Source: Lunularia cruciata
Taxonomy: Eukaryota; Streptophyta; Marchantiopsida; Lunulariales; Lunulariaceae
Length of the DNA stretch: 64,000 bases
Assembly (NCBI GenBank): GCA_948567375.1
Contig: OX419755.1
Span: 4,221,001 to 4,285,000 of the forward strand
Direction: 5' to 3'
In this document: positions 2,355 to 64,000 of the stretch, piece by piece
Layout: each line of letters begins with the position of its first letter
Position numbering within the stretch: the first letter of the stretch is position 1
Made by a program: the position numbers and the translations under genes
Notes under the pieces: generated by a model
Database searches by the model: none
What the model was told of the DNA's origin: nothing
Seen by the model: only the letters and a program-made list of their open reading frames with translations

Positions 2355-2363
2355 TGCTTCAAC

Positions 2364-7800: not shown

Positions 7801-8310
7801 TTGCATGGAATCCATAGATTGGAGATTCTTTAGTAGCTCTTCTTGCATTACCGTCAAATTAATTCTCTTTCGTTTGCCAACATTGATCATTTCCAAGCAT
7901 CATACCATGTGAGTGCTTTATCGGTCAAGTACTCACATGCAAACATGACTACGGAATGATCAATGATCTCAATTATGAATAATCAAAAGTATCAATTCAT
8001 TTTTGAAATTTAGTTTTCCACTATTCCCATGGAATGATATCTGTTGTAAGGCTTGTTGTTGCACATCTTCTTCATCTGGAATAACAATGTGGCTTCATTG
8101 TTGACCGGATTGGTACCATTGGCATGAGTTGACTCTATAGGTATTGGGTTTTGGGATTGTTTCTCTTCTTATATTATCTTATCATTCTTGATGATACGTA
8201 CTTGACTTTGCAATGCTTCCATTGCCATCTTGATATCTCAAAACTCGTTCAACATTCCTTGCATCAAATCATACAATTACGGCTCTATGATTTGTACACA
8301 CAAAAATGCT
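7800..8310 (-). pseudogene. gag capsid remnant of the second gypsy element
   Basis: The minus strand contains a decayed gag: an initial segment (MEALQSQVRI), then FACEYLTDKALTWYDAWK, a gypsy capsid signature (tLxGxAxxWW-like), and MLANERELI. Several stops occur. The remnant ends at about 7800, where the inverted pol block begins. Upstream of it, 8310-8880 is untranslated leader without a recognisable frame. Confidence 0.65.
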
Positions 8311-35051: not shown

Positions 35052-36740
35052 CCAACCTCAGCCCTTGTTGATATTATTTTCCTTTTTATAAAATCAGAAC
35101 AATTTTGTTCAAAGTCTTTTCCGAGATATGTGGCTGTGACGAGATTTGTTGTGACTTAATATTATCGTAGTAAGACTCGAGATTAACCTGCTCTATGTGT
35201 GTATTGATACTGGTGCTATGTTGTGGTCCCCATAAAACTGTAACATACATATTGTTGTATGTGATTGACTTAGAGTGAGCACGGCACTAAATCACAGATG
35301 TAAGGTTAAGGAGCTCCATTCTACTCCACTTTGAATCTTCAGTTTGGTATTCGGTCACATCAGTACTGGCCTTTGGCTTACTTGACAGCCTTCTGGATAC
35401 AAAGTCAGGTCCGGTTAACCATCCTTTTGGTGGTAGGGGTATTTTCCCTAAGGGAATTTAGACGTGCACATTTCTCTTGCTTTAATAGAAGTATATGACA
35501 CCCAGATGCATCTGTCGTTTCTATATTTGTGCGCCTTGTGATGGTTCACTTGACATGTTGTCGGGTCCTGATGTGTATATGTACATGCGTCCTCTCCCTA
35601 TGTTTTGAGATAAAATCTTAAGTTATCAGTTCCTTGTTTTATCATTTCCTCTCAGCTCCGTCACCATCTTCGAGGAGAGAACAGCAAACGCACACCTACT
35701 GGTTGACTCCGACCACACATCGTTATAACCTCGATGTCTACTGGACATGTACGCAAGTCTTAAGGAGACGAAAGGTTTAGAAAACTACAGCGTGAACCAA
35801 TTTCTTTGAGAAAGGTGTGATTCACGTTGTTGGTCATCCGAAGTGAGCGCACTCTGATCTTACGCAGCTAGCAGTACGTTTGCTCGCAGCCTTCTCCTAT
35901 TCTCACCGACTTCAAATTCAGTAGACACTCAAAACGATTAGGACAGGGAGGATGGATTCACAAATTCTGCTTCTAAATACGAGACGCGGTCGCCTTTTCC
36001 GGAGTACGAGACGCCTTACGTAGAGTGATGATGAAAATTCTCCTTGAGGTCGTAGGAGTTGGATCAAGTGCAGAAGTGATAGTGGAGTTATGCTGTGTAT
36101 CTATGTAAAATCCCAAACGTTAGCCAACTGATTTTGGAAATTTCTTTTGGGCCTCGATCTGTTCAATTGTTGATCGACAAGGTACATGACAATGACGCCG
36201 AGAACGGACGTAAGCGAACGCCACCACTAATAATCCTCATCTAAAATAATACAAACCTAGAAAGGCACGAAAGGATAGACATGAAGAATTTGACTACTTG
36301 GGTGACTAGAAGCTTCGGAGCTCTTTTCCTACTAATGGTTTGAATTTCTCAAATCTTAATGCATCTTTCACATATAAATCTTTATTTCAAATAAAAGACC
36401 AATGACATATCGAGCATGGATTATTTTAATCACTTTAGATAATCTTTTTGGATGAGTGAAACCATTTTTAATATAAGAATATTAATAAATATATTGTTAT
36501 TTAAAATTTAATATATTTATAAAATTATAACTTATTTATATATATCATATTTCAAATAAATATATTAATTTCAAATTTTTATTTTTATATTTACATTAAA
36601 TTTTAATATATTAATAAAATATTTTATTATTATTATTCTAAAATATTAAAAAAATGAAAATTAAATTCAAAATAATTCATACTCAATATATTCATTGGTA
36701 TTTTTACTTGAAATAAAAATTTATAAAATCTATTATATTA
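35052..36740. other. UROD 3' flank, then left part of duplication copy A
   Basis: 35052-35376 is the 3' flank of the UROD gene. 35377-36340 matches 51870-52850. In copy B part of it (52310-52612) is an open 100-codon stretch, while here two small indels break that frame. 35986-36000 matches the end of the dispersed repeat (GCGGTCGCCTTTTCC). 36345-36740 is very AT-rich. Confidence 0.6.
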
Positions 36741-37328
36741 TCTATTTCCGTATTACCATCTAATGTATCCTAAAATATTCCCTAATTTCTCCTCCCTCCC
36801 TCCCCTCTTGCGACCTCTCAAACTACTCCGCATTTCAGTCTCTTCAACCGGAGAACCAGAGAACATCATAGAGTTCATGGATCTCCGTCTCTTCAACCTA
36901 ACAACCAGAGAACATGGTAGAGCTCATGGAAGCACTAACACCATAGAGTTCGCGGCGAGAGAAGACAGGTTTGAGAGATTATCATAGTATTTGATACGTT
37001 GCTCCCTCACTCTGCCAGCACCTTCTAGTGTCAAAAAGTCCATGAGGAACGCATAGCGCTTGCGAATTGGTCATACCAAGCGATTGATGCTTTAGCTTCT
37101 GGTACCCACTCTCGTTTTCATTATATTTTGCAGTTGCCTGGTCTTTGTACAGAGTACAATATAATATGGGGAGATAAGTGTCAGCTGATGACTTTCATAC
37201 CTCGGTTCGATCTTTATCGTGTACAGCAGGTGGACCGCAGGTCACTAGTAGGGCAACAGAAGGCACTAAGAGAGAACCTCCCCGTAAGATGACAGGATAG
37301 GAACCACTAACCATACTTAGGTCGACAA

Positions 37329-37360
37329 TTATTGTTACCCTACGCGGTCGCGGCTTTTCA
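37329..37360 (+). repeat. partial match to the short dispersed repeat, NLR-A upstream region
   Basis: TTATTGTTACCCTACGCGGT followed by CGCGGCTTTTCAC resembles the 3' half of the dispersed repeat. It is present in both duplication copies (54883-54914 in B) and a third time at 55167-55188. Confidence 0.5.
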
Positions 37361-37407
37361 CTGGGTCAAGACCATTATTTTGTCAATGTACGAGCTTTTC
37401 ACGTGCG

Positions 37408-37533
37408 ATAGACTGAAGTCGGTAACAGCAGTGAGCTACACGCTAAGACTTTCAGGGCAATAGTGATGTAATAGACTGAGGTCGGTAACAGCTGTGAACT
37501 ACAGGCTAAGACTTTCAGTGCAAGAGTGATGTA
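37408..37533. repeat. 63-bp tandem repeat, two units, upstream of NLR-A
   Basis: Units start ATAGACTGAAGTCGGTAACA (37408) and ATAGACTGAGGTCGGTAACA (37471), exactly 63 bp apart. They lie about 0.75 kb before the start codon. The same region of copy B has six units. Confidence 0.9.
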
Positions 37534-38038
37534 AGTGAAGCAGGGTTAGTGACTATCTCCACTTGCGATATGGACAGGTAGATTTCTGTGGGTGTTGGTC
37601 TATGATCGATGGGCCTGATTTCGAGAGTTTATACTGCGATTTGCTCGTCGTCGTATGGGGCAGAACTTCATTATTTGTCTGTGAGAAGAAATTTCGGGAC
37701 TGAGGGAGATGCACATGAGTCCCCATATTGGAAAGCAGAACAGTGTTGGTTGGGTTGAGGTGTAAGTTGTGAGGAGATTTTGAAAATCAGGAATTGTCTA
37801 GCCAAAGTCATGCTTGGCAACCGCATAGTTTGCCTGAAAGAGCTTGCCTTTTACCGTTGATCTCCGATCGGGAGTTTGGTACTTTCTTCAAGCTGCCTCG
37901 GAAGTTAATCAAAGTACGTACTTGCAAACTTAGGTTTGTAGAACTTGTGTGCACGTGAGCGAGGAGAGTCAGAATTTCGTTGGTCAAACTCTCTCCCGCC
38001 CGGCAATTCATTCCGTGAGAGAACTACAGTTTATGCAG

Positions 38039-38281
38039 GTAAGGATGCTCCGATCTTAACGCCATACAGGATCGGATGTTCGGTTTAGCTTAGAATGGAG
38101 TGAACTTGAAAACTGATTTCTCCTGTCGTCGTTTCGGGATTACTATGGTCGTCACAGTCCGGATTCTCCCCTACCTGGACCGATATGTTGACAATTTCTT
38201 AATGACATTGTATGATTGGCTATACTGCACAAATATGCCCGATTTGCATCCCCTGTTTTCACGGTGACAAGTTGTGTTCAG
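38039..38281 (+). other. probable 5' leader intron of NLR-A
   Basis: A near-perfect donor (TTATGCAG|GTAAGG) at 38038/38039 and an acceptor (TTGTGTTCAG|GATCG) at 38281/38282 bound a 243-bp intron that ends five bases before the ATG at 38287. The counterpart in copy B is conserved. It explains why the open frame upstream of the ATG (from 38212) need not be coding. Confidence 0.65.
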
Positions 38282-38286
38282 GATCG

Positions 38287-41200
38287 ATGGCGGAGGTAGC
38301 AGGTGCAGCTGCGGCACTTGTAGCCCTTATACCCGCGATATTGGATCTGGGCAATAGATGGCACAAGGCACATAGAAAATGGAAGGATATTCCAGCGCAA
38401 TTGGAAAGTCTTCGGAAGCAACACGACACTTACTTGACCATGATGCGTGAATTTGGTCTAACAGACGACCACCAGTTGCGGAAACGGTTGGAGAACGCCA
38501 GGATTCTAGTGGAAAAGGAACAAAGGAACATAGAAAATAGTACACGAATACGTTTTCTTGCCGGATGTTGTTTCAAGCTAACTGCAACTTTTTTCCCCGA
38601 CAAATTGGAAAAGTTGCTTGAGGAGATCCTAGGAGCATACAATGTAGTTTTTACTGTGATGCAACAAAACCAAAGTGCGCGTGAAGTGATGAAGAAGGAA
38701 GCGTTTAATAGACCTTGTTCCTTCAAGATCAGCGAAGGAGGTGAGAGGACACTTGTGCCAGTAAGCATCCACGAAAGGCTTGTAGATGCACTTCAAGAAG
38801 AGGGCGGGCCCTCTGTAGTTCTGTTACACGGTGATCCTGGTACAGGAAAATCTATCTTAGCCAGGTACATGGGTGTCCATTTTACAAATCTGATTCCTGG
38901 AGAAGACGCACCATACAGCTTGGTTTTTTTCTTGGAGTGTGGTTATGGAGCAAGCGTGTCATCCAAGCAACTAGAACTCCTGTCACAGCTTTCTCCAGAG
39001 GATTCTTTGGATATCAATCAAGACAAGGATGCAACTCCCAGAACTACGATTCAGAACCGAATAAAGTGTCTTCTCAGTGTGCGAACCGCTTTGGTGATCT
39101 TGGACGATGTGTGGGAGTCCACTTTCGTAAAGGCATTCGTTGGGATGGTGAACCGAACATCGCCTAGTAACGTGAAGTTGCTGGTCACGTCCCGGAAGTC
39201 CATGCTATGGGAAGATTCTGTACAAATTCAAACGGAGCGGATCGAACCAGAGGAAGCGGAGAAAATCCTTGCATGCCATGCAGGATTGCCAAACAATGAT
39301 CTCCCACAAGATTTGAAGGTTTGTCAGAAACTTCTACTTGATTACTTCTGTGCATTGCATCCTTAAATCCCGGGTTCCTTGTGAGTGAAAATGTATGGGA
39401 GAAAAAGGGGTTGTGTTTGTTAACTGAAACTTGAACTTGATGTCTTGAATATCATATGAAAAGAACTGTTGTTGTCTCTAATTGAAGTTGAAGGTTGATC
39501 CTTAGTCATGGACATTCGATGTATCAAACATCTTAGCACTTAGCTTTTCCAAATCTCACGGTAACAAAGACTTAGCTTTTCCAATCTCACCTGAATAAAC
39601 ACTTCTAATTGCACACAATAACAATCAATTCACTCTTTCACTAAGAGCCGTAGGAGATATTGCATACTGGTTCACTCTAGTATGGAAAGCAAGACACCTT
39701 ATTGTTAAAAGACATAAAAGAGCATGAAAGACACCCCGCCGTTAAACAACGTAGAACACACCTTAAACAGGGTACAAGGTGCTAGAATAATCCTCGTAGA
39801 AAAAATTTAACTTTTCAAGGTGAGAGAACGTAGTTATAAACACAATAATTAAAATTATAGAGAGATTTTGTTAAGCCCTATAAAATTATAGAGAGATTTT
39901 GTTAAGCCCTAAGTGGAACTGCGTCTAACCTTACCTTAATGAGATTTCCTAACCTATAAATATCTAAACAAGAATTGCCTCAACTAGAAACCAATCAAAT
40001 AAATCGAACATAATAGTGCTATTGATGTATGTATCCATGTGATGCATGCATCGATATCTCGATATGCAGGGGTGATACATGCATATCTCGATATGTATGC
40101 ATAGATCACCTCTTCTTCAGTTTCTAGAAGAGAATCAGTTGTTACTTCATGGCCCGGGACTGGGACATATACAAGATGACAGCTTGTACTCCGGTGAGGT
40201 CTTGCCTTTTCAATTCGCCTGGAAATTGCGGATTTTTGAAAGAACTGGATCTTGTTTGTATATACTTACTAGTATTTAGATTTGAATCACTTGTTACTTG
40301 ACATATACCAACTAGGCTAACGATGTATGCATTTGATTTTATGTACTTCTCACAGGATGTTGCTCGAGGTCTGATAGATCGAGCAGAGTATAATCCACTG
40401 GCTTTGGCGATGGCGGGCAAGAGGATAAACAAGAAGAAGAACAATGACGTCGGCGAGTGGAAGAGGGTTGCAAAGAGTTACGCAGCAGCCATAAAGGAAG
40501 ACGTTGAAGGGGGAGGCACGAATCTGAATCTGAGACCAGTACTTCACTTCTCATACGAGAAGAACATTTGGGAGACAATGTTCGTGACGTACAGCGAGCT
40601 CAAAGCTAATGCGAGGCATTTGCTAATCTTGATTGCAAATTGTGAGGGGAAGTCCATCCCCTCACATGTTGTGTACATGTTGTACATGAAGTTACTACAC
40701 ACACGTAGCGAAGGAGATGCAGAGCTGTTCGACGACCATAAAACTCAATTGATGGAAAGCGGTACGATGTTGCAATCGAACATCCAGTATCTAAAATATA
40801 GTGATCCGGTTGCAGGATTGCCAGTCATAAAGAAGGAATACGAAACCTTAGGCTTGCACGATCTGCAACGAAATTTCATCAATTATCACCGGGAGACGAG
40901 AAAGGATGTTGAAGAGGTGATGACTTCTTTGCAGTTGCTGAACGATAAAACCATGCCGAACTCCGGACTTGACCATGAAATTATTTGTGATGATCGGCAC
41001 GGGGATGCAGTCTTTGCACTTTGCGCCCTCTACTTACAGCAACCTTTTGCAGAGAATGCTGCAAAGAACCTTGGAATGAGTGCTGTAGATTACGGCCATT
41101 TAAAGAAGTTACGGGGCGTAATGGAGAATCTTCCCTACTTCATGCACGACCGACTACCAGAATATGTTGAGAACTTGGCTCATTGTGTCAAGCAGGTCTG

Positions 41201-43761
41201 CACTGGTTTTACCCACTCGCGTTCATTCTTAATATCAGGCAGCTTTGTATGAGATCACTGAAACTGCTTCAAATTTACCCTATACTGAAATGAAAAGAAT
41301 CCAATAACGCTCTAACTTTCCATTTTCCTTGCTCTGTATATATTTGTAGGTTTACGTCAAGGTCGTTCGCTATGGACAACTTGATGACAAGTGTCTTCAA
41401 ACTCTGGTCGCATCTTTGAATTATGGACCACCAACAATCAGCACATCGCATCAGCTTGGGGCCGCAGGCTTATGTACTGCCTCTCATACTCCTCGGACCA
41501 TAAAAAGTCTGATTGATTCGTTCTTAACGTCGTGGCACAACGATGCAAGCTTATGTTCTCCTTGCCAGAAACTTCACCTTCACGGTCTCGGCCGTTTGGC
41601 TCGCTTCGAAGCTAATACTAAGCAGATGGTGGTGGTTCCAGGCGCTCTTCAGAGAGTGATAGGCTGTTTGTCTCATAGTCAGAACTCCACGCTCCGGGAA
41701 ATTGCTGCAAACGCTTTAGGTACTATAGCCTTACATGAAGATGGGAACAGGAGAATTGGAGAAGTTCCCGGGTCAATCTCGAAACTCCTTCAGGTCTTTG
41801 TTCAAAGGGATGGAAGTGTGGATTTCCAAGTTCAAGTGCTGAGAACTCTGGCGAATTTGGCTTCATATGAGGCCAATGCCAAGCAGATTCTGGATCTCCC
41901 CGATGCTCTTGAGGCACTTTTGGATGGTGTGTCGGGTGGAATTGACTCATTACTGATGACGAACGTTGCATCGACCTTGGCTAATATAGCCCTATGTGAA
42001 GATGGGAACAAGAGAATTGGAGAAGTTCCCGGGTCAATCTCGAAACTCCTCCAGGTCTTTGTTCAAAGGGATGGAAGTGTGGATTTCCAAGTTGAAGTGC
42101 TGAGAACTCTGGCGAATTTGGCTAATAATGAGGCCAATGCCAAGCAGATTCTGGATCTCCCCGATGCTCTTGAGGCACTTTTGGATGGTGTGTCGGGTGA
42201 AAGTCACTTGGAGCTGACGGAGAATGTTGCAAGGACCTTGGCTAATATAGCCATATGTCAAGATGGGAAGAGGAGAATGGGAGAAGTTCCCGGGTCAATC
42301 TCGAAACTCCTCCAGGTCTTTGTTCAAAGGGATGGAAGTGTGGATTTCCAAGTTGAAGTGCTGAGAACTCTGGCGAATTTGGCTAATAATGAGGCCAATG
42401 CCAAGCAGATTCTGGATCTCCCCGATGCTCTTGAGGCACTTTTGGATGGTGTGTCGGGTGAAAGTAACTTGGAGCTGACGGAGAATGTTGCATGGACCTT
42501 GGCTAATATAGCCATATGTGAAGATGGGAAGAGGAGAATGGGAGAAGTTCCCGGGTCAATCTCGAAACTCCTCCAGGTCTTTGTTCAAAGGGATGGAAGT
42601 GTGGATTTCCAAGTTGAAGTGCTGAGAACTCTGGCGAATTTGGCTAATAATGAGGCCAATGCCAAGCAGATTCTGGATCTCCCCGATGCTCTTGAGGCAC
42701 TTTTGGATGGTGTGTCGGGTGAAAGTAACTTGGAGCTGACGGAGAATGTTGCATGGACCTTGGCTAATATAGCCATATCTGAAGATGGGAAGAGGAGAAT
42801 CGGAGAAGTTCCCGGGTCAATATCGAAACTTCTTACTAGGCTCTTCCTTCCGGGAGAGGAAACTGTGGAGTTTCTGAAAGTGCAACAGCAGCTGGGGAGA
42901 ACTTTGAAGAATTTAGCTGTAACTGGGGCCAATGCTAAGCAGATCGTGGACTCCCCGGGTGCTATTCAGGGACTGATAGATTGCTTGTCTCGAGGAAAGA
43001 GCTCGTTGCTAATGGAGTATGTGGCATGGACTTTAGTACAGATGGCATATCATAACGATGAAGATGGATATGGCCGAAGACGGATAGGGGAAGTTCCTGG
43101 CTCAATCTCAGAACTGTGTACACTCTTCCTTCAAGGTGGCGGAACTGATCGCTTCCAAGAGGGAGTGGTGACAACATTGGGCAATCTAGCTTATGGAGAT
43201 GAGGTGAATTGTAAATGGATAGTGGAATTCCCCGGTGTTCTTAACAGACTGGTAGATTGCTTATCTCCCGGAGAGAGTAGTGTTGCATCGGCCTTGGCTG
43301 ACATATCAATGAGTAAAGATGGGAAAAGGCGAATTGGAGAAATTCCCGGGTCAATCTCCAAACTGCTCACACTCTTCCTACAAGGTGATGCAACTATGGA
43401 GGTCCAAGAATGGCTGGTTCTAACTTTGGGTAATTTAGCTCATGACGTTGCCCATCGCAAACACATCACGGATTCCCCTGGAGGTCTTGAAGGATTGGTT
43501 GATTTCTTGTCTAGCAACAAAAGTCCTTTGATCCTGGAAAGCTTCGCACGGGTATTTGATACTCTGGCCATTGACAAGGAGTTAGAGAGGAGGATTGGAA
43601 GCATTCCAGGCGCTACATCAAAGTTGATCGCATTCTTTGGAGGGGACCAGGTTACTGAAAATTCTCGCTTTCAAGGCCTATGTGATCTGCTAGCTAGTGC
43701 TGGTGATTCTTTGTGGCCAAGTGCAGGTGAGAAGGCTTTAGTACACCCCGCTGAGATCTAG
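38287..43761 (+). CDS. NLR-type immune receptor with NB-ARC and armadillo repeats, copy A
   Basis: Predicted intracellular receptor. Exons: 38287-39318, 40356-41195, 41350-43761 (GT-AG, phase 0), 1427 residues. Residues 1 to about 145 are helical (MAEVAGAAAALVALIP start), with no TIR, kinase or hydrolase fold seen. NB-ARC: P-loop GDPGTGKS (182-189), kinase-2 LVILDDVW (269-276), LLVTSR (298-303). Across the intron follow NPLALAMAG (357-365, the GLPL position), a winged-helix region and LHD (511-513, in place of MHD). Exon 3 is an armadillo array. An irregular start is followed by four near-identical 87-residue units (762-848, 849-935, 936-1022, 1023-1109), each a pair of ARM repeats (44 + 43), then degenerate ARM repeats to the end. 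NLRs usually carry LRRs here, so the ARM C-terminus is unusual. Function in immunity is inferred from the NB-ARC family. No defect is seen. Confidence 0.88.
39850..39912. repeat. 32-bp tandem duplication in NLR-A intron 1
   Basis: ATTATAGAGAGATTTTGTTA plus AGCCCTA occurs twice in a row here and once at the matching place in copy B (about 57730), so it arose after the segmental duplication or was lost from B. Confidence 0.9.
41761..42804 (+). repeat. ARM-unit array of NLR-A: 4 x 261 bp
   Basis: GAAGTTCCCGGGTCAAT begins units at 41761, 42022, 42283 and 42544 and the following diverged unit at 42805: an exact 261-bp period with no indels. Units 2-4 differ from one another by only a few bases. 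Unit 1 carries GGIDSLLMTN, while units 2-4 carry GES.LELTEN at the same place. Confidence 0.97.
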
Positions 43762-51869: not shown

Positions 51870-52309
51870 CACTTGACAACCTTATGGATACAAAGTCAGG
51901 TCCGTTAACCGTCGTTTTGGTGGTGGGGGTCTTTCCCCCAAGGGAATTTAGAAGTGCACATTTCTCTTGCTTTAATAGAAGTATATGACACCCAGATCCA
52001 TCTGTCGTTTCTATTTTTGCGCGCCTTGTGATGGCTCACTTGACATGTTGTCGTGTCCTGATGAGTATATGTAAATGCGTCCTCTCTCTGTTTTTTGAGA
52101 TAAAATCTTAAGTTATCAGTTCCTTGTTTTATCATTTCCTCTCAGCTCCGTCACCATCTTCGAGGAGAGAACAGCAAACGCACACCTACTGGTTGACTCT
52201 GACCACACATCGTTATAACCTCGATGTCTACTGGACATGTACGCAAGGTTCTTAAGGAGACGAAAGGTTTAGAAAAACCACAGCGTGAACCAATTTCTTT
52301 GAGAAAGGT

Positions 52310-52612
52310 GTGATTCACGTTGTTGGTCATCCGAAGTGGGCGACCTCTGATCTTACGCAGCTAGCAGTACGTTTGCTCGCAGCCTTCTCCTATTCATTCT
52401 CACCGACTTCAAATTCAGTAAACGCTCAAAACGATTGGGACAGGGAGGATGGATTCACAAATTCTGCTTCTAAATACGAGACGTGGTCGCCTTTTCCGTT
52501 TTTCGGAATACGAGACGCCTTACGTAGAGTGATGATGAAAATTCTCCTTGAGGTCGTAGGAGTTGGATCAAGTGCAGAAGTGATAGTGGAGTTATGCTGT
52601 GTACCTATGTAA
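52310..52612 (+). pseudogene. unidentified open frame conserved in the duplication, broken in copy A
   Basis: A 100-residue frame (IHVVGHPKWATSDLTQLAVR ... FTNSASKYETWSPFPFFGIR ... GVGSSAEVIVELCCVPM) with coding-like composition. In copy A the same DNA (about 35818-36110) has a 4-bp deletion and a 7-bp difference that disrupt the frame. Family not recognised. It may be an exon or relic of a gene carried along with the duplication. Confidence 0.35.
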
Positions 52613-52887
52613 AGTCCCAAACGTTAGCCAACTGGTTTAAAAAATTTCTTTTGGGCCTCGATCTGGTTCAATTGTTGATCGACAAGAGTAAATGACAATG
52701 ATGCCGGGAACAGACGTAAGTGAACATCACCACACTAATAATCCTCATCTAAAATAATACAAACCTAGAAAGGCACAAAAGAATAGACATCATGAAGAAT
52801 TTGACAACTTCTAGATAGTGACTTCTAGTTCCGGCGCTCTTTTCCTACTAATGGTTTGAATTTCCAGTGTGAACATCCCATATGATC

Positions 52888-53976
52888 AGGCTTCTTTATT
52901 TGCGGCTTTTTTAGTGGAAACGCCGCATTTAGCCGCATATAACTTTTGTGCAGCGCAGCATTTTTGGGGAACATCCTGCATAGAAAATTAAAGTAGCAAG
53001 CCCTAATATGTTTCGATCACAACCCCAAACCCCGATTCAAAGTTTTCTTTTCTTGAAAACAGCTAGATATACACTTGGTTGTTTATCATTCTCCAGTAAT
53101 GTCGCGCTCCACTCCATTCAAGAAGGAACACTGTTTGCAGTTTGGCGTCAAAATCTGCGAACTTGATGCTGAGACCAAGGTATTGATGTTAGTCTCTTGC
53201 ATGTTCTGGAGAATATCGGGCGGACAACAATTTCAATAAACCATGCCGTGCGGACATGTACCGTAGACACATGGAGACCCAACATCCACAACACTGGAAG
53301 GACTATTTGGCACTCGACGCTTGCAAGAAGACCAACTTGTTCGATTGACAATCTATTGTCCGATTGTTTCCCGCAACACCATCAAATCGCACTTTGGTGG
53401 TTCACATGCTCCTGTTCATTTGTTTGTGGACAAGGATATAGTCATGTTATAATTGGCAAATTGTTTTACAAGCAAGAATGTGGTCACGACACCAGTAAGG
53501 AACGCGCTCTAAGTATCTTTGAAGATGTTCTAGACTAATCGGAAGCCATCGATGGTAATGGAACTGATGCTGCGGCATTGAGATACCGGATTAGATTGAT
53601 GAATCTTGCTCAATTCTATCTCATTTCTGATTATCTCGGCACGGGAGTGTCCTTTCGAATGGCTGTACGAATTTTGAGGATGACAAAAGAACAACCTCTC
53701 TTTGCTCTCTCTCATGGAAGATATGCTGTGTATGCCAGATATACAGTGTGGATTTGTGCACTACAACTTGTAAAACTTGTATATCCAAATGGAGTTTTTA
53801 GGTTCGGGGAGGGAGAGGTCGAGAGTTTTGTTGCGACAAGTATTCATTGAGATGGAGGGAGAGTTTTATTAAGAAAATATATAAATCTATGTGTCATTTT
53901 CTATAATTGCCACATTTAACCGTATTCATTTTTCCTTGGGAGCCGCAATTGGTCCACATTGCAAATAAAAAGGCCT
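52888..53976. mobile_element. decayed DNA transposon, hAT-like, only in duplication copy B
   Basis: The ends form imperfect inverted repeats: AGGCTTCTTTATTTGCGGC (52888-52906) and the complement of GCAAATAAAAAGGCCT (53961-53976). CATATGATC occurs on both sides (52879-52887 and 53984-53992), a target-duplication-like repeat, although the right one is offset by 7 bp. Inside is a decayed gene starting at ATG 53099 (MSRSTPFKKEHCLQFGVKI), then MYRRHMETQHPQHWKDYL, which resembles a BED-type zinc finger, and later LAQFYLISDYLGTGVSFRMA. Frames are broken. The matching site in copy A (about 36345) lacks it. Superfamily assignment is tentative. Confidence 0.55.
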
Positions 53977-54882
53977 GCATCTGCATATGATCCAATAATA
54001 ATTCTTCTTTCACTCATAAATTTTTATCTCCTTGCCAAGTAAAAAATCTATATTATTTTCATCAAAAAGTCTGTATATTTGTAAATTTATAATCTATTCA
54101 TATATTAATTTCAAAATTTTAAAAATATATATTTACTTTATTTATAATATATTTTTATCATTTTTAATTTCTATTTAATATATTTAAAAATAGAATTTAA
54201 AATATATTTCTTTATTTATCATACTAAAAATCAAAATAATTTAGTTTTTAGTTACAAATAAAAAAACTATTATTCGTCAATATTACCATCTAATGTGTTC
54301 TAAAATATTCTCACATTTCTCTCCCCTCCCTCTTCTCTTGCGACCTTCTCAAACTACTCCGCATTTCAGCCTCTTCAACCTGAGAACCAGAGAACATCAT
54401 AGAGTTCATGGATCTCCGTCTCTTCAACCTAAGAACCAGAGAACATCATAGAGCTCATGGAAGCACCAACGCCATAGAGTTCGCGGCGAGAGAAGACAGG
54501 TTTGAGAGAGTAAGATAGGATTTGACACGATGCTCCCTCACTATGCCAGCACCTTCTAGTGTTCAAAAGTCCATGAGGAACGCATAGCGCTTGCGAATTG
54601 GTCATACCAAGCAATTCAATTGATGCTTTAGCTTGTGGTACCGACCTCTCGTTTCCATTATATTTTGCACTTGCCTGGTCTTTGTACAGAGTACAATATA
54701 ATATAGGGAAAATAAGTGTCAGCTGATGACTTTCATAACTCGGTTCGATCTTTATCGTGTACAGGAGGTGGACCCCAGGTCACTAGTAGCGCAACAGAAG
54801 GCACTAGAGAGAACCTCCCCGTAAGAGACTACACGAGTCTGATGACAGGACAGGAACCAGTAACTGTACTTACGTCGACTAT

Positions 54883-54914
54883 TATTGTTACCCTACGCGG
54901 TCGCGGCTTTTCAC
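54883..54914 (+). repeat. partial match to the short dispersed repeat, NLR-B upstream region
   Basis: Counterpart of 37329-37360. The core CCTACGCGGTCGCGGCTTTT is duplicated again within this copy at 55167-55188. Confidence 0.5.
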
Positions 54915-54959
54915 TGGGTCAAGACCACTTTTTGTCAATGTACGAGCTTTTCACGTGGG

Positions 54960-55412
54960 ATAGACTGAAGTCGGTAACAGCAGTGAGCTACAGGCTAAGA
55001 CTTTCAGGGCAAGAGTGATGTAATAGACTGCGGTGGGTAACAGCTGTGAACTACCGCTAAGACGTTCAGTGCGAGAATGATGTAATAGACTGAGGTCGGT
55101 AACAGCTGTGAACTACAGGCTAAGACTTTCAGTGCAAGAGTGATGCAAGTGAAGCAGGGTTAGTGACTACGCGGTCGCGGCTTTTCACGGGAGATAGACT
55201 GAAGTCGGCAACAGCAGTGAGCTACACGCTAAGACTTTCAGGGCAACAGTGATGTAATAGAATGAGGTGGGTAACAGCTGTGAACTACCGGCTTAGCTTT
55301 CAGTGCGAGAATCATGGAATAGACTGAGGTCTATTCCATGGTCTATAACATATGTTATGGTCGGTAACACCTGTGAACTACAGGTTAAGACTTTCAGTGC
55401 AAGAGTGATGTA
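54960..55412. repeat. 63-bp tandem repeat, six units in two blocks, upstream of NLR-B
   Basis: Units begin near 54960, 55023, 55085, then 55194, 55257 and 55319. Each block of three is preceded by GCGGTCGCGGCTTTTCAC and followed by AGTGAAGCAGGGTTAGTGAC, so the blocks are themselves a higher-order duplication. The last unit contains an insertion with two perfect palindromes: TGGAATAGAC-TGAG-GTCTATTCCA (55315-55338) and ATAACATATGTTAT. Confidence 0.88.
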
Positions 55413-55917
55413 AGTGAAGCAGGGTTAGTGACTATCTCCACTTGCGATATGGACAGGTAGATTTCTGTGGGTGCTGGTCTGTGATCGATGGGCCTGATTT
55501 CGAGAGTTTATACTGCGATTTGCTCGTCGTCGTATGGGGCAGAACTTCATTATTTGTCTGTGAGAAGAAATTTCGGGACTGAGGGAGATGCACATGAGTC
55601 CCCATATTGGAAAGCAGAACAGTGTTGGTTGGGTTGAGGTGTAAGTTGTGAGGAGATTTTGAAAATCAGGAATTGTCTAGCCAAAGTCATGCTTGGCAAC
55701 CGCATAGTTTGCCTGAAAGAGCTTGCCTTTTACCGTTGATCTCCGATCGGGAGTTTGGTACTTTCTTCAAGCTGCCTCGGAAGTTAATCAAAGTACGTAC
55801 TTGGAAACTTAGGTTTGTAGAACTTGTGTGCACGTGAGCGAGGAGAGTCAGAATTTCGTTGGTCAAACTCTCTCCCGCCCGGCAATTCATTCCGTGAGAG
55901 AACTACAGTTTATGCAG

Positions 55918-56160
55918 GTAAGGATGCTCCGATCTTAACGCCATACAGGATCGGATGTTCGGTTTAGCTTAGAATGGAGTGAACTTGAAAATTGATTTCT
56001 CCTGTCGTCGTTTCGGGATTACTATGGTCGTCACAGTCCGGATTCTCCCCTACCTGGACCGATATGTTGACAATTTCTTAATGACATTGTATGATTGGCT
56101 ATACTGCACAAATATGCCCGATTTGCATCCCCTGTTTTCACGGTGTCAAGTTGTGTTCAG
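55918..56160 (+). other. probable 5' leader intron of NLR-B
   Basis: Same donor (TTATGCAG|GTAAGG) and acceptor (GTGTTCAG|GATCG) as in copy A, ending five bases before the ATG at 56166. Confidence 0.65.
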
Positions 56161-56165
56161 GATCG

Positions 56166-59100
56166 ATGGCGGAGGTAGCAGGTGCAGCTGCGGCACTTGT
56201 AGCCCTTATACCCGAGATATTGGATCTGGGCAATAGATGGCACAAGGCACATAGAAAATGGAAGGATATTCCAGCGCAATTGGAAAGTCTTCGGAAGCAA
56301 CACGACACTTACTTGACCATGATGCGTGAATTTGGTCTAACAGACGACCACCAGTTCCGGAAACGGTTGGAGAACGCCAGGATTCTAGTGGAAAAGGAAC
56401 AAAGGAACATAGAAAATAGTACACGAATATGTTTTCTTGCCGGATGTTGTTTCAAGCTAACTGCAACTCTTTTCCCCGACAAATTGGAAAAGTTGCTTGA
56501 GGAGATACTAGGAGCATACAAGGTAGTTTTTACTGTGATGCAACAAAACCAAAGTGCGCGTGAAGTGATGAAGAAGGAAGCGTTTAATAGACCTTGTTCC
56601 TACAAGATCAGCGAAGGAGGTGAGAGGACACTTGTGCCAGTAAGCATCCACGAAAGGCTTGTAGATGCACTTCAAGAAGAGGGCGGGCCCTCTGTAGTTC
56701 TGTTACACGGTGATCCTGGTACAGGAAAATCTATCTTAGCCAGGTACATGGGTGTCCATTTTACAAATCTGATTCCTGGAGAAGACGCACCATACAGCTT
56801 GGTTTTTTTCTTGGAGTGTGGTTATGGAGCAAGCGTGTCATCCAAGCAACTAGAACTCCTGTCACAGCTTTCTCCAGAGGATTCTTTGGATATCAATCAA
56901 GACAAGGATGCAACTCCCAGAACTACGATTCAGAACCGAATAAAGTGTCTTCTCAGTGTGCGAACCGCTTTGGTGATCTTGGACGATGTGTGGGAGTCCA
57001 CTTTCGTAAAGGCATTCGTTGGGATGGTGAACCGAACATCGCCTAGTAACGTGAAGTTGCTGGTCACGTCCCGGAAGTCCATGCTATGGGAAGATTCTGT
57101 ACAAATTCAAACGGAGCGGATCGAACCAGAGGAAGCGGAGAAAATCCTTGCATGCCATGCAGGATTGCCAAACAATGATCTCCCACAAGATTTGAAGGTT
57201 TGTCAGAAACTTCTACTTGGTTATTTTTGTGCATTATATCCTCAAATCCCGGGTTCCTTGTGAGTGAAAATTTATGGGAGAAAATGGGTTGTGTTTGTTA
57301 ACTGAAACTTGAACTTGATGTTTTGAATATCATATGAAAGGTGATGTTGTTGTCTCTAATTGAAGTTGAAGGTTGATCCTTAGTCATGGATATTCGATGT
57401 ATCAACCATCTTAGCACTTAGCTTTTCCAAATCTCACTGGAATAAACACTTAGATTTTCCAATCTCACCGGAATAAACCCTTCTAATTGCACACAATAAT
57501 AATCAATTCACTCTTTCACTAAGAGCCCTAGGAGATATTGCATACTGGTTCACTCTAGTATGGAAAGCAAGACACCTTATTGTTAAAAGACATAAAAGAG
57601 CATGAAAGACACCGCGCCATTAAACAACGTAGAACACACCTTAAACAGGGTACAAGGTGCTAGAATAATCCTTGTAGAAAAAATTTAACTTTTCAAGGTG
57701 AGAGAACGTAGTTATATACACAATAATTAAAATTATAGAGAGATTTTGTTAAGCCCTAAGTGGAACTGCGTCTAACCTTACCTTAATGAGATTTCCTAAC
57801 CTATAAATATCTAAACAAGAATTACCTCAACTAGAAACCAATCAAATAAATCGAACATAATAGTGCTATTGATGTATGTATCCGTGTGATGCATGCATCG
57901 ATATCTCGATATGCAGGGGTGATACATGCATATCTCGATATGTATGCATAGATCACCTCTTCTTCAGTTTCTAGAAGAGAATCAGTTGTTACTTCATGGC
58001 CCGGGACTGGGACATATACAAGATGACAGCTTGTACTCCGGTGAGGTCTTGCCTTTTCAATTTGCCTGGAAATTGCGGATTTTTGAAAGAACTGGATCTT
58101 GTTTGTATATACTTACTAGTATTTAGATTTGAATCACTTGTTACTTGACATATACCAACTAGGCTAACGATGTATGCATTTGATTTTATGTACTTCTCAC
58201 AGGATGTTGCTCGAGGTCTGATAGATCGAGCAGAGTATAATCCACTGGCTTTGGCGATGGCGGGCAAGAGGATAAACAGGAAGAAGAACAATGACGTCGG
58301 CGAGTGGAAGAGGGTTGCAAAGAGTTACGCAGCAGCCATAAAGGAAGACGTTGAAGGGGGAGGCACGAATCTGAATCTGAGACCAGTACTTCTCTTCTCA
58401 TACGAGAAGAACATTTGGGAGACAATGTTCGTGACGTACAGCGAGCTCAAAGCTAATGCGAGGCATTTGCTAATCTTGATTGCAAATTGTGAGGGGAAGT
58501 CCATCCCCTCACATGTTGTGTACATGTTGTACATGAAGTTACTACACACACGTAGCGAAGGAGATGCAGAGCTGTTCGACGACCATAAAACTCAATTGAT
58601 GGAAAGCGGTACGATGTTGCAATCGAACATCCAGTATCTAAAATATAGTGATCCGGTTGCAGGATTGCCAGTCATAAAGAAGGAATACGAAACCTTAGGC
58701 TTGCACGATCTGCAACGAAATTTCATCAATTATCACCGGGAGACGAGAAAGGATGTTGAAGAGGTGATGACTTCTTTGCAGTTGCTGAACGATAAAACCA
58801 TGCCGAACTCCGGACTTGACCATGAAATTATTTGTGATGATCGGCACGGGGATGCAGTCTTTGCACTTTGCGCCCTCTACTTACAGCAACCTTTTGCAGA
58901 GAATGCTGCAAAGAACCTTGGAATGAGTGCTGTAGATTACGGCCATTTAAAGAAGTTACGGGGCGTAATGGAGAATCTTCCCTACTTCATGCACGACCGA
59001 CTACCAGAATATGTTGAGAACTTGGCTCATTGTGTCAAGCAGGTCTGCACTGGTTTTACCCACTCGCGTTCATTCTTAATATCAGGCAGCTTTGTATGAG

Positions 59101-62100
59101 ATCACTGAAACTGCTTCAAATTTACCCTATACTGAAATGAAAAGAATCCAATAACGCTCTAACTTTCCATTTTCCTTGCTCTGTATATATTTGTAGGTTT
59201 ACGTCAAGGTCGTTCGCTATGGACAACTTGATGACAAGTGTCTTCAAACTCTGGTCGCATCTTTGAATTATGGACCACCAACAATCAGCACATCGCATCA
59301 GCTTGGGGCCGCAGGCTTATGTACTGCCTCTCATACTCCTCGGACCATAAAAAGTCTGATTGATTCGTTCTTAACGTCGTGGCACAACGATGCAAGCTTC
59401 TGTTCTCCTTGCCAGAAACTTCACCTTCACGGTCTCGGCCGTTTGGCTCGGTTCGAAGCTAATACTAAGCAGATGGTGGTGGTTCCAGGCGCTCTTCAGA
59501 GAGTGATAGGCTGTTTGTCTCATAGTCAGAACTCCACGCTCCGGGAAATTGCTGCAAACGCTTTAGCTACTATAGCCTTTCATGACGATGGGAACAGGAG
59601 AATTGGAGAAGTTCCCGGGTCAATCTCGAAACTCCTTCAGGTCTTTGTTCACAGGGATGGAAGTGTGGATTTCCAAGTTGAAGTGCTGAGAACTCTGTCG
59701 AATTTGGCTTCATGTGAGGCCAATGCCAAGCAGATTCTGGATCTCCCCGATGCTCTTGAGGCACTTTTGGATGGTGTGTCGGGTGGAATTGACTCATTAC
59801 TGATGACGAACGTTGCATCGACCTTGGCTAATATAGCCGTATGTGAAGATGGGAAGAGGAGAATTGGAGAAGTTCCCGGGTCAATCTCGAAACTCCTCCA
59901 GGTCTTTGTTCAAAGGGATGGAAGTGTGGATTTCCAAGTTCAAGTGCTGAGAACTCTGTCGAATTTGGCTTCATGTGAGGCCAATGCCAAGCAGATTCTG
60001 GATCTCCCCGATGCTCTTGAGGCACTTTTGGATGGTGTGTCGGGTGGAATTGACTCATTACTGATGACGAAGGTTGCATGGACCTTGGCTAATATAGCCA
60101 TATGTGAAGATGGGAAGAGGAGAATTGGAGAAGTTCCCGGGTCAATCTCGAAACTCCTCCAGGTCTTTGTTCAAAGGGATGGAAGTGTGGATTTCCAAGT
60201 TCAAGTGCTGAGAACTCTGGCGAATTTGGCTAATAATGAGGCCAATGCCAAGCAGATTCTGGATCTCCCCGATGCTCTTGAGGCACTTTTGGATGGTGTG
60301 TCGGGTGGAATTGACTCATTACTGATGACGAACGTTGCATGGACCTTGGCTAATATAGCCGTATGTGAAGATGGGAAGAGGAGAATTGGAGAAGTTCCCG
60401 GGTCAATCTCGAAACTCCTCCAGGTCTTTGTTCAAAGGGATGGAAGTGTGGATTTCCAAGTTGAAGTGCTGAGAACTCTGGCGAATTTGGCTAATAATGA
60501 GGCCAATGCCAAGCAGATTCTGGATCTCCCCGATGCTCTTGAGGCACTTTTGGATGGTGTGTCGGGTGGAATTGACTCATTACTGATGACGAACGTTGCA
60601 TGCACCTTGGCTAATATAGCCGTATGTGAAGATGGGAAGAGGAGAATTGGAGAAGTTCCCGGGTCAATCTCGAAACTCCTCCAGGTCTTTGTTCAAAGGG
60701 ATGGAAGTGTGGATTTCCAAGTTGAAGTGCTGAGAACTCTGGCGAATTTGGCTAATAATGAGGCCAATGCCAAGCAGATTCTGGATCTCCCCGATGCTCT
60801 TGAGGCACTTTTGGATGGTGTGTCGGGTGGAATTGACTCATTACTGATGACGAAGGTTGCATGGACCTTGGCTAATATAGCCATATGTGAAGATGGGAAG
60901 AGGAGAATTGGAGAAGTTCCCGGGTCAATCTCGAAACTCCTCCAGGTCTTTGTTCAAAGGGATGGAAATGTGGATTTCCAAGTTGAAGTGCTGAGAACTC
61001 TGGCGAATTTGGCTAATAATGAGGCCAATGCCAAGCAGATTCTGGATCTCCCCGATGCTCTTGAGGCACTTTTGGATGGTGTGTCGGGTGGAATTGACTC
61101 ATTATTGATGACGAAGGTTGCATCGACCTTGGCTAATATAGCCGTATGTGAAGATGGGAAGAGGAGAATTGGAGAAGTTCCCGGGTCAATCTCGAAACTC
61201 CTCCAGGTCTTTGTTCAAAGGGATGGAAGTGTGGATTTCCAAGTTCAAGTGCTGAGAACTCTGGCGAATTTGGCTAATAATGAGGCCAATGCCAAGCAGA
61301 TTCTGGATCTCCCCGATGCTCTTGAGGCACTTTTGGATGGTGTGTCGGGTGGAATTGACTCATTACTGATGACGAACGTTGCATGGACCTTGGCTAATAT
61401 AGCCGTATGTGAAGATGGGAAGAGGAGAATTGGAGAAGTTCCCGGGTCAATCTCGAAACTCCTCCAGGTCTTTGTTCAAAGGGATGGAAGTGTGGATTTC
61501 CAAGTTGAAGTGCTGAGAACTCTGGCGAATTTGGCTAATAATGAGGCCAATGCCAAGCAGATTCTGGATCTCCCCGATGCTCTTGAGGCACTTTTGGATG
61601 GTGTGTCGGGTGGAATTGACTCATTACTGATGACGAACGTTGCATGCACCTTGGCTAATATAGCCGTATGTGAAGATGGGAAGAGGAGAATTGGAGAAGT
61701 TCCCGGGTCAATCTCGAAACTCCTCCAGGTCTTTGTTCAAAGGGATGGAAGTGTGGATTTCCAAGTTGAAGTGCTGAGAACTCTGGCGAATTTGGCTAAT
61801 AATGAGGCCAATGCCAAGCAGATTCTGGATCTCCCCGATGCTCTTGAGGCACTTTTGGATGGTGTGTCGGGTGGAATTGACTCATTACTGATGACGAACG
61901 TTGCATGGACCTTGGCTAATATAGCCGTATGTGAAGATGGGAAGAGGAGAATTGGAGAAGTTCCCGGGTCAATCTCGAAACTCCTCCAGGTCTTTGTTCA
62001 AAGGGATGGAAGTGTGGATTTCCAAGTTCAAGTGCTGAGAACTCTGGCGAATTTGGCTAATAATGAGGCCAATGCCAAGCAGATTCTGGATCTCCCCGAT

Positions 62101-64000
62101 GCTCTTGAGGCACTTTTGGATGGTGTGTCGGGTGGAATTGACTCATTACTGATGACGAACGTTGCATGGACCTTGGCTAATATAGCCATATGTGAAGATG
62201 GGAAGAGGAGAATTGGAGAAGTTCCCGGGTCAATCTCGAAACTCCTCCAGGTCTTTGTTCAAAGGGATGGAAGTGTGGATTTCCAAGTTCAAGTGCTGAG
62301 AACTCTGGCGAATTTGGCTAATAATGAGGCCAATGCCAAGCAGATTCTGGATCTCCCCGATGCTCTTGAGGCACTTTTGGATGGTGTGTCGGGTGGAATT
62401 GACTCATTATTGATGACGAAGGTTGCATGGACCTTGGCTAATATAGCCGTATGTGAAGATGGGAAGAGGAGAATTGGAGAAGTTCCCGGGTCAATCTCGA
62501 AACTCCTCCAGGTCTTTGTTCAAAGGGATGGAAGTGTGGATTTCCAAGTTCAAGTGCTGAGAACTCTGGCGAATTTGGCTAATAATGAGGCAAATGCCAA
62601 GCAGATTCTGGATCTCCCCGATGCTCTTGAGGCACTTTGGGATGGTGTGTCGGGTGGAATTGACTCATTACTGATGACGAAGGTTGCATCGACCTTGGCT
62701 AATATAGCCATGTGTGAAGATGGGAAGAGGAGAATTGGAGAAGTTCCCGGGTCAATCTCGAAACTCCTCCAGGTCTTTGTTCAAAGGGATGGAAGTGTGG
62801 ATTTCCAAGTTGAAGTGCTGAGAACTCTGGTGAATTTGGCTTCATGTGAGGCCAATGCCAAGCAGATTCTGGATCTCCCCGATGGTCTTGAGGCACTTTG
62901 GGATGGTGTGTCGGGTGGAATTAACTCATTACTGATGACGAAGGTTGCATCGACCTTGGCTAATATAGCCATGTGTGAAGATGGGAAGAGGAGAATTGGA
63001 GAAGTTCCCGGGTCAATCTCGAGACTCCTCCAGGTCTTTGTTCAAAGGGATGGAAGTGTGGATTTCCAAGTTGAAGTGCTGAGAACTCTGGCGAATTTGG
63101 CTTCATATGAGGCCAATGCCAAGCAGATTCTGGATCTCCCCGATGCTCTTGAGGCACTATTGGATGGTGTGTCGGGTGAAAGTAACTTGGAGCTGACGGA
63201 GAATGTTGCATGGACCTTGGCAAATATAGCCTTATCTGAAGATGGGAAGAGGAGAATCGGAGAAGTTCCCGGGTCAATATCGAAACTTCTTACTAGGCTC
63301 TTCCTGCCGGGAGAGGAAACTGTGGAGTTTCTGAAAGTGCAACAGCAGCTGGGGAGAACTTTGAAGAATTTAGCTGTAACTGGGGCCAATGCTAAGCAGA
63401 TCGTGGACTCCCCGGGTGCTATTCAGGGACTGATAGATTGCTTGTCTCGAGGAAAGAGCTCGTTGCTAATGGAGTATGTGGCATGGACTTTAGTACAGAT
63501 GGCATATCATAACGATGAAGATGGATATGGCCGAAGACGGATAGGGGAAGTTCCTGGCTCAATCTCAGAACTGTGTACACTCTTCCTTCAAGGTGGCGGA
63601 ACTGATCGCTTCCAAGAGGGAGTGGTGACAACATTGGGCAATCTAGCTTATGGAGATGAGGTGAATTGTAAATGGATAGTGGAATTCCCCGGTGTTCTTA
63701 ACAGACTGGTAGATTGCTTATCTCCCGGAGAGAGTAGTGTTGCATCGGCCTTGGCTGACATATCAATGAGTAAAGATGGGAAAAGGCGAATTGGAGAAAT
63801 TCCCGGGTCAATCTCCAAACTGCTCACACTCTTCCTACAAGGTGATGCAACTATGGAGGTCCAAGAATGGCTGGTTCTAACTTTGGGTAATTTAGCTCAT
63901 GACGTTGCCCATCGCAAACACATCACGGATTCCCCTGGAGCTCTTGAAGGATTGGTTGATTTCTTGTCTAGCAACAAAAGTCCTTTGATCCTGGAAAGCT
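56166..64000 (+). CDS. NLR-type immune receptor with NB-ARC and expanded armadillo array, copy B, 3' end outside window
   Basis: Paralogue of the copy A gene with the same exon structure: 56166-57197, 58203-59042, and 59197 to the window end. The last exon stays open for the remaining 1601 codons, with no stop seen. The N-terminal domain differs from copy A at six residues (A17E, L64F, R89C, F102L, N119K, F146Y). Residues 147-344, with P-loop, kinase-2 and LVTSR, are identical. Exon 2 has two changes (K370R, H408L). Exon 3 carries 14 near-identical 87-residue double-ARM units (residues 762-1979) instead of four, followed by the same degenerate ARM tail. If the end matches copy A, the protein has about 2297 residues. 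Everything seen is intact. Transcription and function are not shown by sequence. Confidence 0.87.
59608..63261 (+). repeat. ARM-unit array of NLR-B: 14 x 261 bp
   Basis: GAAGTTCCCGGGTCAAT recurs at 59608 + n x 261 (n = 0-13), with the diverged next unit at 63262. The spacing stays exact across 3.65 kb. Units 1-13 carry GGIDSLLMT(N/K); unit 14 carries the GESNLELTEN form found in copy A. Units 3-4 and 7-8 show the same residue pattern at the variable codons, suggesting a block duplication of about four units (1044 bp). Confidence 0.97.

What the first reader, a model, noticed from the sequence alone, without database searches (positions are those of the whole stretch)
56166..64000. A plant NLR whose recognition domain is a fast-changing array of near-identical double-ARM units (4 in one paralogue, 14 in the other)
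Seen: two NB-ARC genes in a recent direct duplication. Their array lengths are 4 and 14 units of exactly 261 bp, with no indels, always in frame, so the expansion of ten units (2610 bp) keeps the protein open. Known: fungal NLR-like proteins (for example the HET-E/HET-D type, NACHT with WD40) use high-identity repeats that change number and residues to generate new recognition specificities. Plant NLRs classically end in LRRs; TPR and ARM C-termini exist in early land plants but I know of no description of a hypervariable high-identity ARM array. Inference: this is a plant analogue of that fungal strategy, with repeat units reshuffled by unequal crossing-over or conversion.
Basis: partly seen in the sequence, partly recalled or inferred. 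Interest (0 to 1): 0.93.

Follow-up and report, generated by a model that had tools for sequence, protein, structure and literature searches.

The report
Plant NLR with variable armadillo array
A plant genome carries a family of immune-receptor-type genes whose recognition end is a tandem array of near-identical armadillo repeats that differs in length between gene copies and varies mainly on the face predicted to hold a bound peptide, a design best known from fungi.

Summary
Two tandem NB-ARC genes (A 38287-43761; B 56166-64218, cut by the window) differ at 0.2-1.2% of coding bases outside their arrays, yet carry 4 and 14 in-frame units of exactly 261 bp, each two armadillo (ARM) repeats. At least 27 places in the same genome match most of exon 1; 16 exon-3 frames tabulated show 11 different unit counts (3-21), with block duplications and recombinant units.

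New here: variation concentrates on one face of helix 3. At ten positions taken from designed ARM proteins, pN/pS is 1.53 against 0.67 elsewhere (12 arrays), while the backbone-gripping asparagines are mostly kept. The position set was chosen after I had seen which columns vary, and in A and B alone the pN/pS contrast is absent.

Best reading: an NLR family that renews its peptide- or effector-binding groove by exchange among units plus diversifying selection, as fungal NLRs do with WD40, ANK and TPR repeats. NB-ARC-ARM proteins are known in plants; my searches showed no near-identical, number-variable ARM array in them. Expression, ligand and population variation are untested; whether A lost or B gained units is open.

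The parts
38287..39318 (+). Gene A exon 1: N-terminal region (MAEVAGAAAAL...) and first part of NB-ARC (GDPGTGK, LVILDDVW)
40356..41195 (+). Gene A exon 2: rest of NB-ARC (NPLALA, LHD)
41350..43761 (+). Gene A exon 3: 803 aa plus stop, armadillo region in a single exon
41758..42801 (+). Gene A array: 4 units of 261 bp
42802..43062 (+). Diverged ARM unit of 261 bp after the array of A (1 nt different from its counterpart in B)
56166..57197 (+). Gene B exon 1 (protein 98% identical to A)
58203..59042 (+). Gene B exon 2
59197..64000 (+). Gene B exon 3, cut by the window end; stop codon ends at 64218 in window numbering; 1673 aa
59605..63258 (+). Gene B array: 14 units of 261 bp; units 3 and 7 identical, units 4 and 8 identical
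63259..63519 (+). Diverged ARM unit of 261 bp after the array of B
35380..43761 (.). First copy of the tandem duplication (aligned in pieces to 51871-64000, with an unaligned gap between 36348 and 36751; its end compared through the fetched flank of B)
51871..64000 (.). Second copy of the tandem duplication, open at the window end

Best explanation
A and B are intact-looking members of an expanded plant NB-ARC-armadillo receptor family. The C-terminal armadillo solenoid is the ligand-binding part: an extended peptide, or an exposed tail of an effector or host protein, lies in the concave groove. Conserved asparagines hold its backbone, and residues on the exposed face of helix 3 (unit positions 26, 29, 32, 36, 37 and their partners 69, 72, 75, 79, 80) read its side chains. 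Because the array lies in one exon made of in-frame 261-bp units, unequal crossing-over and conversion between units can add, remove, duplicate in blocks and recombine units without breaking the protein, and selection keeps novelty in the groove while the scaffold stays conserved. Binding would then switch the NB-ARC domain and release the N-terminus, as in other NLRs. Shown here: architecture (by splice-site reading), ARM fold of A exon 3 by prediction, different unit numbers and recombinant units among paralogues, excess amino-acid variation at predicted contact sites. Inferred: peptide or effector binding, immune function, switching mechanism, variation between individuals.
For: NB-ARC 78.9 bits over profile 6-247 of 248 and ARM matches. 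The best model of A exon 3 has pLDDT 71-89 per ten-residue block over the array; the 50 Foldseek rows shown include designed ARM chains 4rv1 (2.1-2.3 A over 431-434 columns), many beta-catenin chains and Vac8. 27 places in the genome cover at least 309 of 344 residues of exon 1 at 47% identity or more, 5 of them with stop codons. Open exon-3 frames of 803, 1673, 1323, 2192, 1976, 1146, 1901, 1508, 1322, 1917, 1707 and 2261 aa are among those listed; 16 frames tabulated have 11 different unit counts. For 140 of 161 units of 12 arrays the closest unit (ties included) lies in the same array. Identical units recur in blocks (B 3-4 = 7-8; L056 9-11 = 13-15), and four-gamete incompatibilities occur in 11 of 12 arrays (A has no informative column). 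At ten contact positions pN/pS is 1.53 against 0.67 elsewhere over 12 arrays; random ten-codon sets reach the observed pN in 0.015% and the observed ratio in 0.66% of draws. One array per close group (7 of 12): 1.62 and 0.61. The asparagine positions 33 and 76 are Asn in 115 and 126 of 140 units of 11 arrays (L052 left out), and in 18 of 18 units of A and B.
Against: In A plus B alone pN/pS is 1.21 at contact sites and 1.31 elsewhere; A alone 0.91 against 1.59. The bootstrap interval of the contact-site ratio touches 1 (1.02-2.65 and 0.99-2.64 in two runs over 12 arrays). The contact set was taken from papers but after I had seen the per-column variability of A, B and relatives, so the test is not blind. 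Sliding the set gives as high a pN at +4 (0.205) and +7 (0.197) as at 0 (0.198). Units within an array and neighbouring genes are not independent. Of the five models of A exon 3 two are poor (mean pLDDT 43), and the exon-1 model is unusable (pLDDT 38). Several relatives are broken or lose the frame after the array (L044, L045, L047, L048). No expression, ligand or population data.
Confidence: 0.67

Rival explanations
1. Neutral turnover: a coding minisatellite inside a receptor under relaxed constraint expands and contracts by slippage or unequal exchange, without selection for new binding.
For: Several members have broken frames; pN/pS in the window genes alone is near 1 in both site classes; amplification of identical blocks needs no selection.
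Against: Open frames up to 2261 aa; pN/pS at the other sites 0.67, interval 0.50-0.95; excess replacement on one helix face in arrays of different clusters, with different residues.
Confidence: 0.19
2. It is a conserved regulatory NB-ARM protein of the rice RLS1 type, whose ARM region has a fixed partner and whose arrays differ only by lineage-specific amplification.
For: CC-NB-ARM proteins are described as conserved in plants, and rice RLS1 is named as a possible regulator of immunity (PMC12512272, passages read).
Against: Many clustered copies with different arrays do not fit a fixed partner; no RLS1 sequence was available for comparison.
Confidence: 0.08
3. Assembly artefact: the unit numbers are wrong because repeats were collapsed or expanded.
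For: Arrays of near-identical units are hard to assemble; two exon-3 stretches on C10, 35 kb apart, are identical over 4100 bases (L054, L055).
Against: Most units are distinct (12 distinct proteins among 14 in B), both window arrays stay in frame with matching end units, and relatives at several loci show the same pattern. Reads were not available.
Confidence: 0.06

Closest known systems
Fungal NLRs with high internal conservation repeats (HET-D/HET-E NACHT-WD40; P. anserina ANK and TPR NLRs)
   Same: STAND receptor with a C-terminal array of units over 80-85% identical, number differing between genes, units exchanged, excess replacement at interaction-surface positions (PMC4986451 and PMC12222747, passages read)
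   Different: ARM repeats in 87-aa double units rather than WD40, ANK or TPR; allelic variation in populations and non-self recognition are shown for the fungal genes but not here
Plant CC-NB-ARM / NB-ARM proteins (rice RLS1; Selaginella NB-ARM)
   Same: NB-ARC and an ARM region in one protein; described as conserved in plants (PMC12512272, PMC7145615, passages read)
   Different: The passages read describe no near-identical, number-variable array; no sequence comparison was possible
Designed armadillo repeat proteins and importin alpha
   Same: ARM fold, asparagine ladder, and variable positions equivalent to pocket positions of designed binders
   Different: No NB-ARC; ligand here unknown
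Canonical plant CC- and TIR-NLRs
   Same: NB-ARC switch and clustered tandem duplicates
   Different: Recognition end is ARM, not LRR; N-terminus reaches no Pfam CC, RPW8 or TIR model

Membership tests
Plant NLR / NB-ARC STAND protein | NB-ARC domain with P-loop, kinase 2, GLPL and MHD-type motifs in order | tested here: met
   Pfam NB-ARC 78.9 bits on spliced exons 1-2; GDPGTGK, LVILDDVW, NPLALA, LHD (motif names recalled)
Plant NLR / NB-ARC STAND protein | Known N-terminal signalling domain (CC, TIR, RPW8, kinase, hydrolase) | tested here: inconclusive
   No Pfam match over a cut-off; model of low confidence, mostly helical. Of 30 loci printed, 22 begin with M at the match start, 11 with MAEV and 8 with MVEV; likeness to MAEPL or MADA starts is by eye only
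Plant NLR / NB-ARC STAND protein | C-terminal LRR | tested here: not met
   No LRR model among the Pfam rows shown for exon 3 (all 18 for B, 25 of 28 for A); ARM fold
NB-ARC-ARM subclass | NB-ARC followed by armadillo solenoid in one protein | tested here: met
   the fusion rests on splice-site reading, no transcript seen
NB-ARC-ARM subclass | Shared ancestry with the RLS1 clade | not testable with these tools
   No plant reference sequences at hand; protein searches gave no relative
High-internal-conservation (HIC) NLR strategy as in fungi | Repeat units over 85% identical over 100 aa or more | tested here: met
   Mean aa identity 0.89 (A) and 0.93 (B); 0.85 or more (rounded) in 10 of 16 frames tabulated, identical twins L054 and L055 counted separately
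High-internal-conservation (HIC) NLR strategy as in fungi | Repeat number polymorphism among individuals | not testable with these tools
   Only one genome; paralogues differ
High-internal-conservation (HIC) NLR strategy as in fungi | Diversifying selection at interaction-surface positions | tested here: inconclusive
   pN/pS 1.53 against 0.67 across 12 arrays, but interval touching 1, position set not chosen blind, and no contrast in A+B alone
High-internal-conservation (HIC) NLR strategy as in fungi | Non-self recognition triggering cell death | not testable with these tools
   No functional data

The most novel reading that the evidence does not exclude
A plant lineage evolved, independently of fungi, a modular reading receptor. 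Each 87-residue unit is two ARM repeats that could read a few residues of an extended ligand. Receptor specificity would be rewritten by adding, deleting and swapping whole units within one exon, giving natural counterparts of designed armadillo peptide binders and possibly an ARM code relating residues 26/69, 29/72 and 36/79 to ligand side chains.
Probability: 0.35. Interest if true: 0.92.

Novelty: new variant of a known kind. Interest (0 to 1): 0.8.

Why it matters
Fungal NLRs diversify by exchange among near-identical repeats; [quoted passage not shown] A plant receptor family doing the same with ARM repeats would be a convergent solution to making new recognition specificities without adaptive immunity. 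Because designed ARM proteins have partly known side-chain pockets, ligand prediction from sequence may be more approachable here than for LRRs.

Tried and rejected
Protein searches with the exon-3 ORF of A (the 7995 candidates sharing most words were scored) and with B exon 1 (5447 candidates) found nothing at E 0.001; I draw no conclusion, having seen no sign that the database holds plant gene models. Dating the A/B split by silent sites was given up: there are only 0-1 synonymous differences per coding part. The exon-1 structure prediction failed (pLDDT 38) and was not searched against structures. Lineage tests: SAM_LFY 1 match (that it is a plant family is recalled); Rx_N 0 and Cbl_N 0 with silent controls, so absence is not shown.

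Rows dropped: 19 exon-3 sequences were scanned, 16 frames tabulated, 12 used for pN/pS. Left out of the last step: L058 (89-aa units), L055 (identical to L054), L041 and L044 (3 units each in the frame tabulated). L042, L045 and L047 had short or broken frames and were not tabulated. L040, L043 and L046 were not scanned: no or weak exon-3 match. L052 has 86/88-aa spacings, so fixed-length slices are misregistered for some of its units (seen); without it the ratios are 1.61 and 0.65. L052 is also left out.

Literature: ten searches over open-licence PMC texts; eight concerned NLRs or repeats and two designed ARM proteins. In the eight, neither the titles and abstract starts listed nor the passages read describe a near-identical ARM array in a plant NLR; most subscription papers and all preprints are outside that library. 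The RLS1 paper was not held.

For the second reason the confidence went from 0.70 to 0.67, the rivals up slightly, and the selection row of the membership test to inconclusive.
Full report
What is there. The window is G000:C1:4221001-4285000 of a 566-Mb assembly in 74 contigs. Two direct copies of one three-exon gene lie in it. Both introns have GT/AG ends at matching places and keep the frame. The joined A protein has 1427 residues and one terminal stop. Exons 1-2 encode an N-terminal region with only sub-threshold Pfam matches, and a complete NB-ARC (78.9 bits, profile 6-247 of 248). The nearest solved sequences are Apaf-1 and the Arabidopsis protein At5g66900, at E 0.0003-0.001. Exon 3 is ARM-like: Pfam Arm_2 and Arm pass their cut-offs, next to other matches that repetitive sequence probably gives spuriously.

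The arrays. A has 4 and B has 14 units of exactly 261 bp, then one diverged unit of the same length that differs by 1 nt between A and B. Within B, units differ at 0 to 27 of 261 positions. Outside the arrays A and B differ at 7 of 1032 bases (exon 1), 2 of 840 (exon 2), 5 of 408 (exon 3 before the array) and 2 of 741 (after the array, to the window end), 7 of 807 upstream, 0 of 154 in intron 2, and 31 of 1005 aligned bases in intron 1, which also has 32 gap columns. Ten units were thus gained or lost while single-copy coding parts changed by 0.2-1.2%. The first unit of A resembles the first units of B. The last unit of B (ESNLELTEN block) resembles A2-A4, and a similar block is in the last unit of L050. 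A therefore looks like a copy in which the terminal type was multiplied and the middle type lost or never gained; the direction cannot be decided.

Fold. AlphaFold2 on A exon 3 alone gave a best model of mean pLDDT 72.2 (the five models 72.2, 70.0, 62.5, 43.4, 43.0), with 71-89 per ten-residue block over the array and six helices per 87-residue unit. In the 50 Foldseek rows shown (of 1696) are many beta-catenin chains, Vac8, and four designed ARM chains of entry 4rv1 over 431-434 columns at 2.1-2.3 A; TM-scores normalised by the query in those rows are 0.34-0.55. By sequence exon 3 matches importin alpha, Vac8 and an engineered repeat protein; in the alignment to ARMC8 the W at unit position 72 meets a W and the N at 76 an N.

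The family. Exon 1 of B finds 120 matches (117 of 184 candidates scored); 27 cover at least 309 of 344 residues at 47% identity or more, 5 of them with internal stops. They lie on C1, C11 (46.1 and 49.0 Mb), C10 (29.1-29.3 Mb), C7, C2, with single ones on C12 and at C11 49.7 Mb. Exon 3 of A finds 116 matches (56 of 445 candidates scored); the open frames listed run from 546 to 2261 aa. Of 19 sequences scanned, 16 frames were tabulated: 4, 14, 10, 20, 21, 10, 8, 8, 17, 9, 13, 13, 15, 20, 3 and 3 units for A, B, L050, L051, L052, L059, L058, L053, L039, L048, L054, L055, L056, L057, L041 and L044. L059, L058 and L044 are interrupted, so their numbers are lower bounds; L048 loses its frame after the array; the 60% consensus threshold may count some end units. 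L054 and L055 are identical over 4100 bases, and most L058 units have 89 aa. Mean within-array aa identity ranges from 0.68 (L039) to 0.94 (L058).

Exchange. For 140 of 161 units in 12 arrays the closest unit, ties included, is in the same array; of the 21 exceptions 14 lie among L054, L056 and L057 of one cluster. Identical units recur in order: B 3-4 and 7-8, L051 8-9 and 10-11, L056 9-11 and 13-15. L056 has a two-unit higher-order period (lag-2 identity 96.3%, lag-1 92.2%). Four-gamete incompatibilities occur in 11 of 12 arrays (A has no informative column); recurrent mutation can add to these.

Where the units vary. Contact positions were taken from papers, but after I had seen the per-column variability, so the test is not blind; the set includes two columns of low variability (22, 25) and leaves out the two most variable ones (79, 36). 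PMC12202725 (passages read) lists pocket residues 155, 159, 162, 194, 197, 198, 201 of 5AEI. PMC4756613 (passages read) gives Trp159 and Trp201 as repeat position 33, so the pocket is positions 26, 29, 30, 33 and 36; that the two papers share residue numbering is my inference. Setting W72 as position 33, and moving by 43 for the first ARM of the unit, gives unit positions 22, 25, 26, 29, 32, 65, 68, 69, 72, 75. Amino-acid variability is higher there than elsewhere in 12 of 12 arrays, permutation p below 0.05 in 11 of 12 (A 0.056). Pooled pN/pS is 1.53 there and 0.67 elsewhere; the ratio is higher at contact sites in 10 of the 11 arrays where it is defined (not in A; undefined in L054). A bootstrap over codons and arrays gives P(contact not above rest) about 0.002 and P(contact not above 1) 0.02. 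One array per close group (7 of 12) gives 1.62 and 0.61. The window genes alone give 1.21 and 1.31, no contrast, although pN is still concentrated at these sites (p 0.003). Sliding the set along the unit gives high pN at 0, +3, +4, +7 and +10 and lower values between, a helical face; +4 (0.205) is slightly above the chosen register (0.198), because positions 36 and 79, one turn further, are the most variable, with at least 12 residue types each in 140 units of 11 arrays. Variability correlates with itself at half a unit, 43-44 positions (r 0.36; the other shifts from 36 to 51 reach 0.16 at most), that is in both ARM halves. The asparagines at 33 and 76, equivalent to the ladder that holds peptide backbones in ARM proteins (PMC6838082 and PMC4756613, passages read), are kept in 115 and 126 of 140 units and in 18 of 18 units of A and B.

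How it most likely works. A groove that keeps its backbone grip while its side-chain readers change fits a binder of extended peptides whose targets change. Whole in-frame units in one exon make number and order free to change. I give this 0.67. That the ligand is a pathogen effector, that binding triggers a resistosome, and that alleles differ between individuals are inferences.

Known or new. NB-ARC-ARM proteins are known (PMC12512272 and PMC7145615, passages read). High-identity, number-variable repeats with diversifying selection are known in fungal NLRs (PMC4986451 and PMC12222747, passages read). Their combination in a plant NLR with ARM repeats did not appear in my eight literature searches on the subject. 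I therefore rate it a new variant of a known kind.

Noticed in passing
window 37408-37534; 54960-55145; 55194-55331: 62-63-bp tandem repeats upstream of both genes, 2.0 copies before A and 3.0 plus 2.2 before B: the upstream region also differs in repeat number between the paralogues.
   Followed up: no
window 1008-3401; 565-2722 versus 5715-7809: Ty3/gypsy-type pol fragments in several frames, and a second related stretch at 76.7% identity (identification by eye).
   Followed up: no
window 34527-35051: ORF resembling the C-terminal part of uroporphyrinogen decarboxylase just before the duplicated block, which starts near 35380 (identification by eye).
   Followed up: no
G000 C1:12.65-13.46 Mb, C8:10.96-11.33 Mb, C7:18.3-19.0 Mb, C12:11.5-11.7 Mb: Other clusters of NB-ARC genes with near-equal scores, suggesting recent tandem amplification. 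Of 8 NB-ARC loci held with 1.5-kb flanks (L001-L008) none shows a 261-bp-like array; two (L006, L008) have a 72-bp tandem pair.
   Followed up: partly
L058 (G000:C11:46148980-46152300): Array in which most units have 89 aa: a two-residue insertion near helix 3 has spread, a length variant of the unit.
   Followed up: partly
L056 (G000:C10:29137900-29142550): Two-unit (522-bp) higher-order repeat, alternating unit types.
   Followed up: partly
L054 and L055 (G000:C10:29195400 and 29230100): Exon-3 stretches 35 kb apart identical over 4100 bases: very recent duplication or an assembly duplicate.
   Followed up: no
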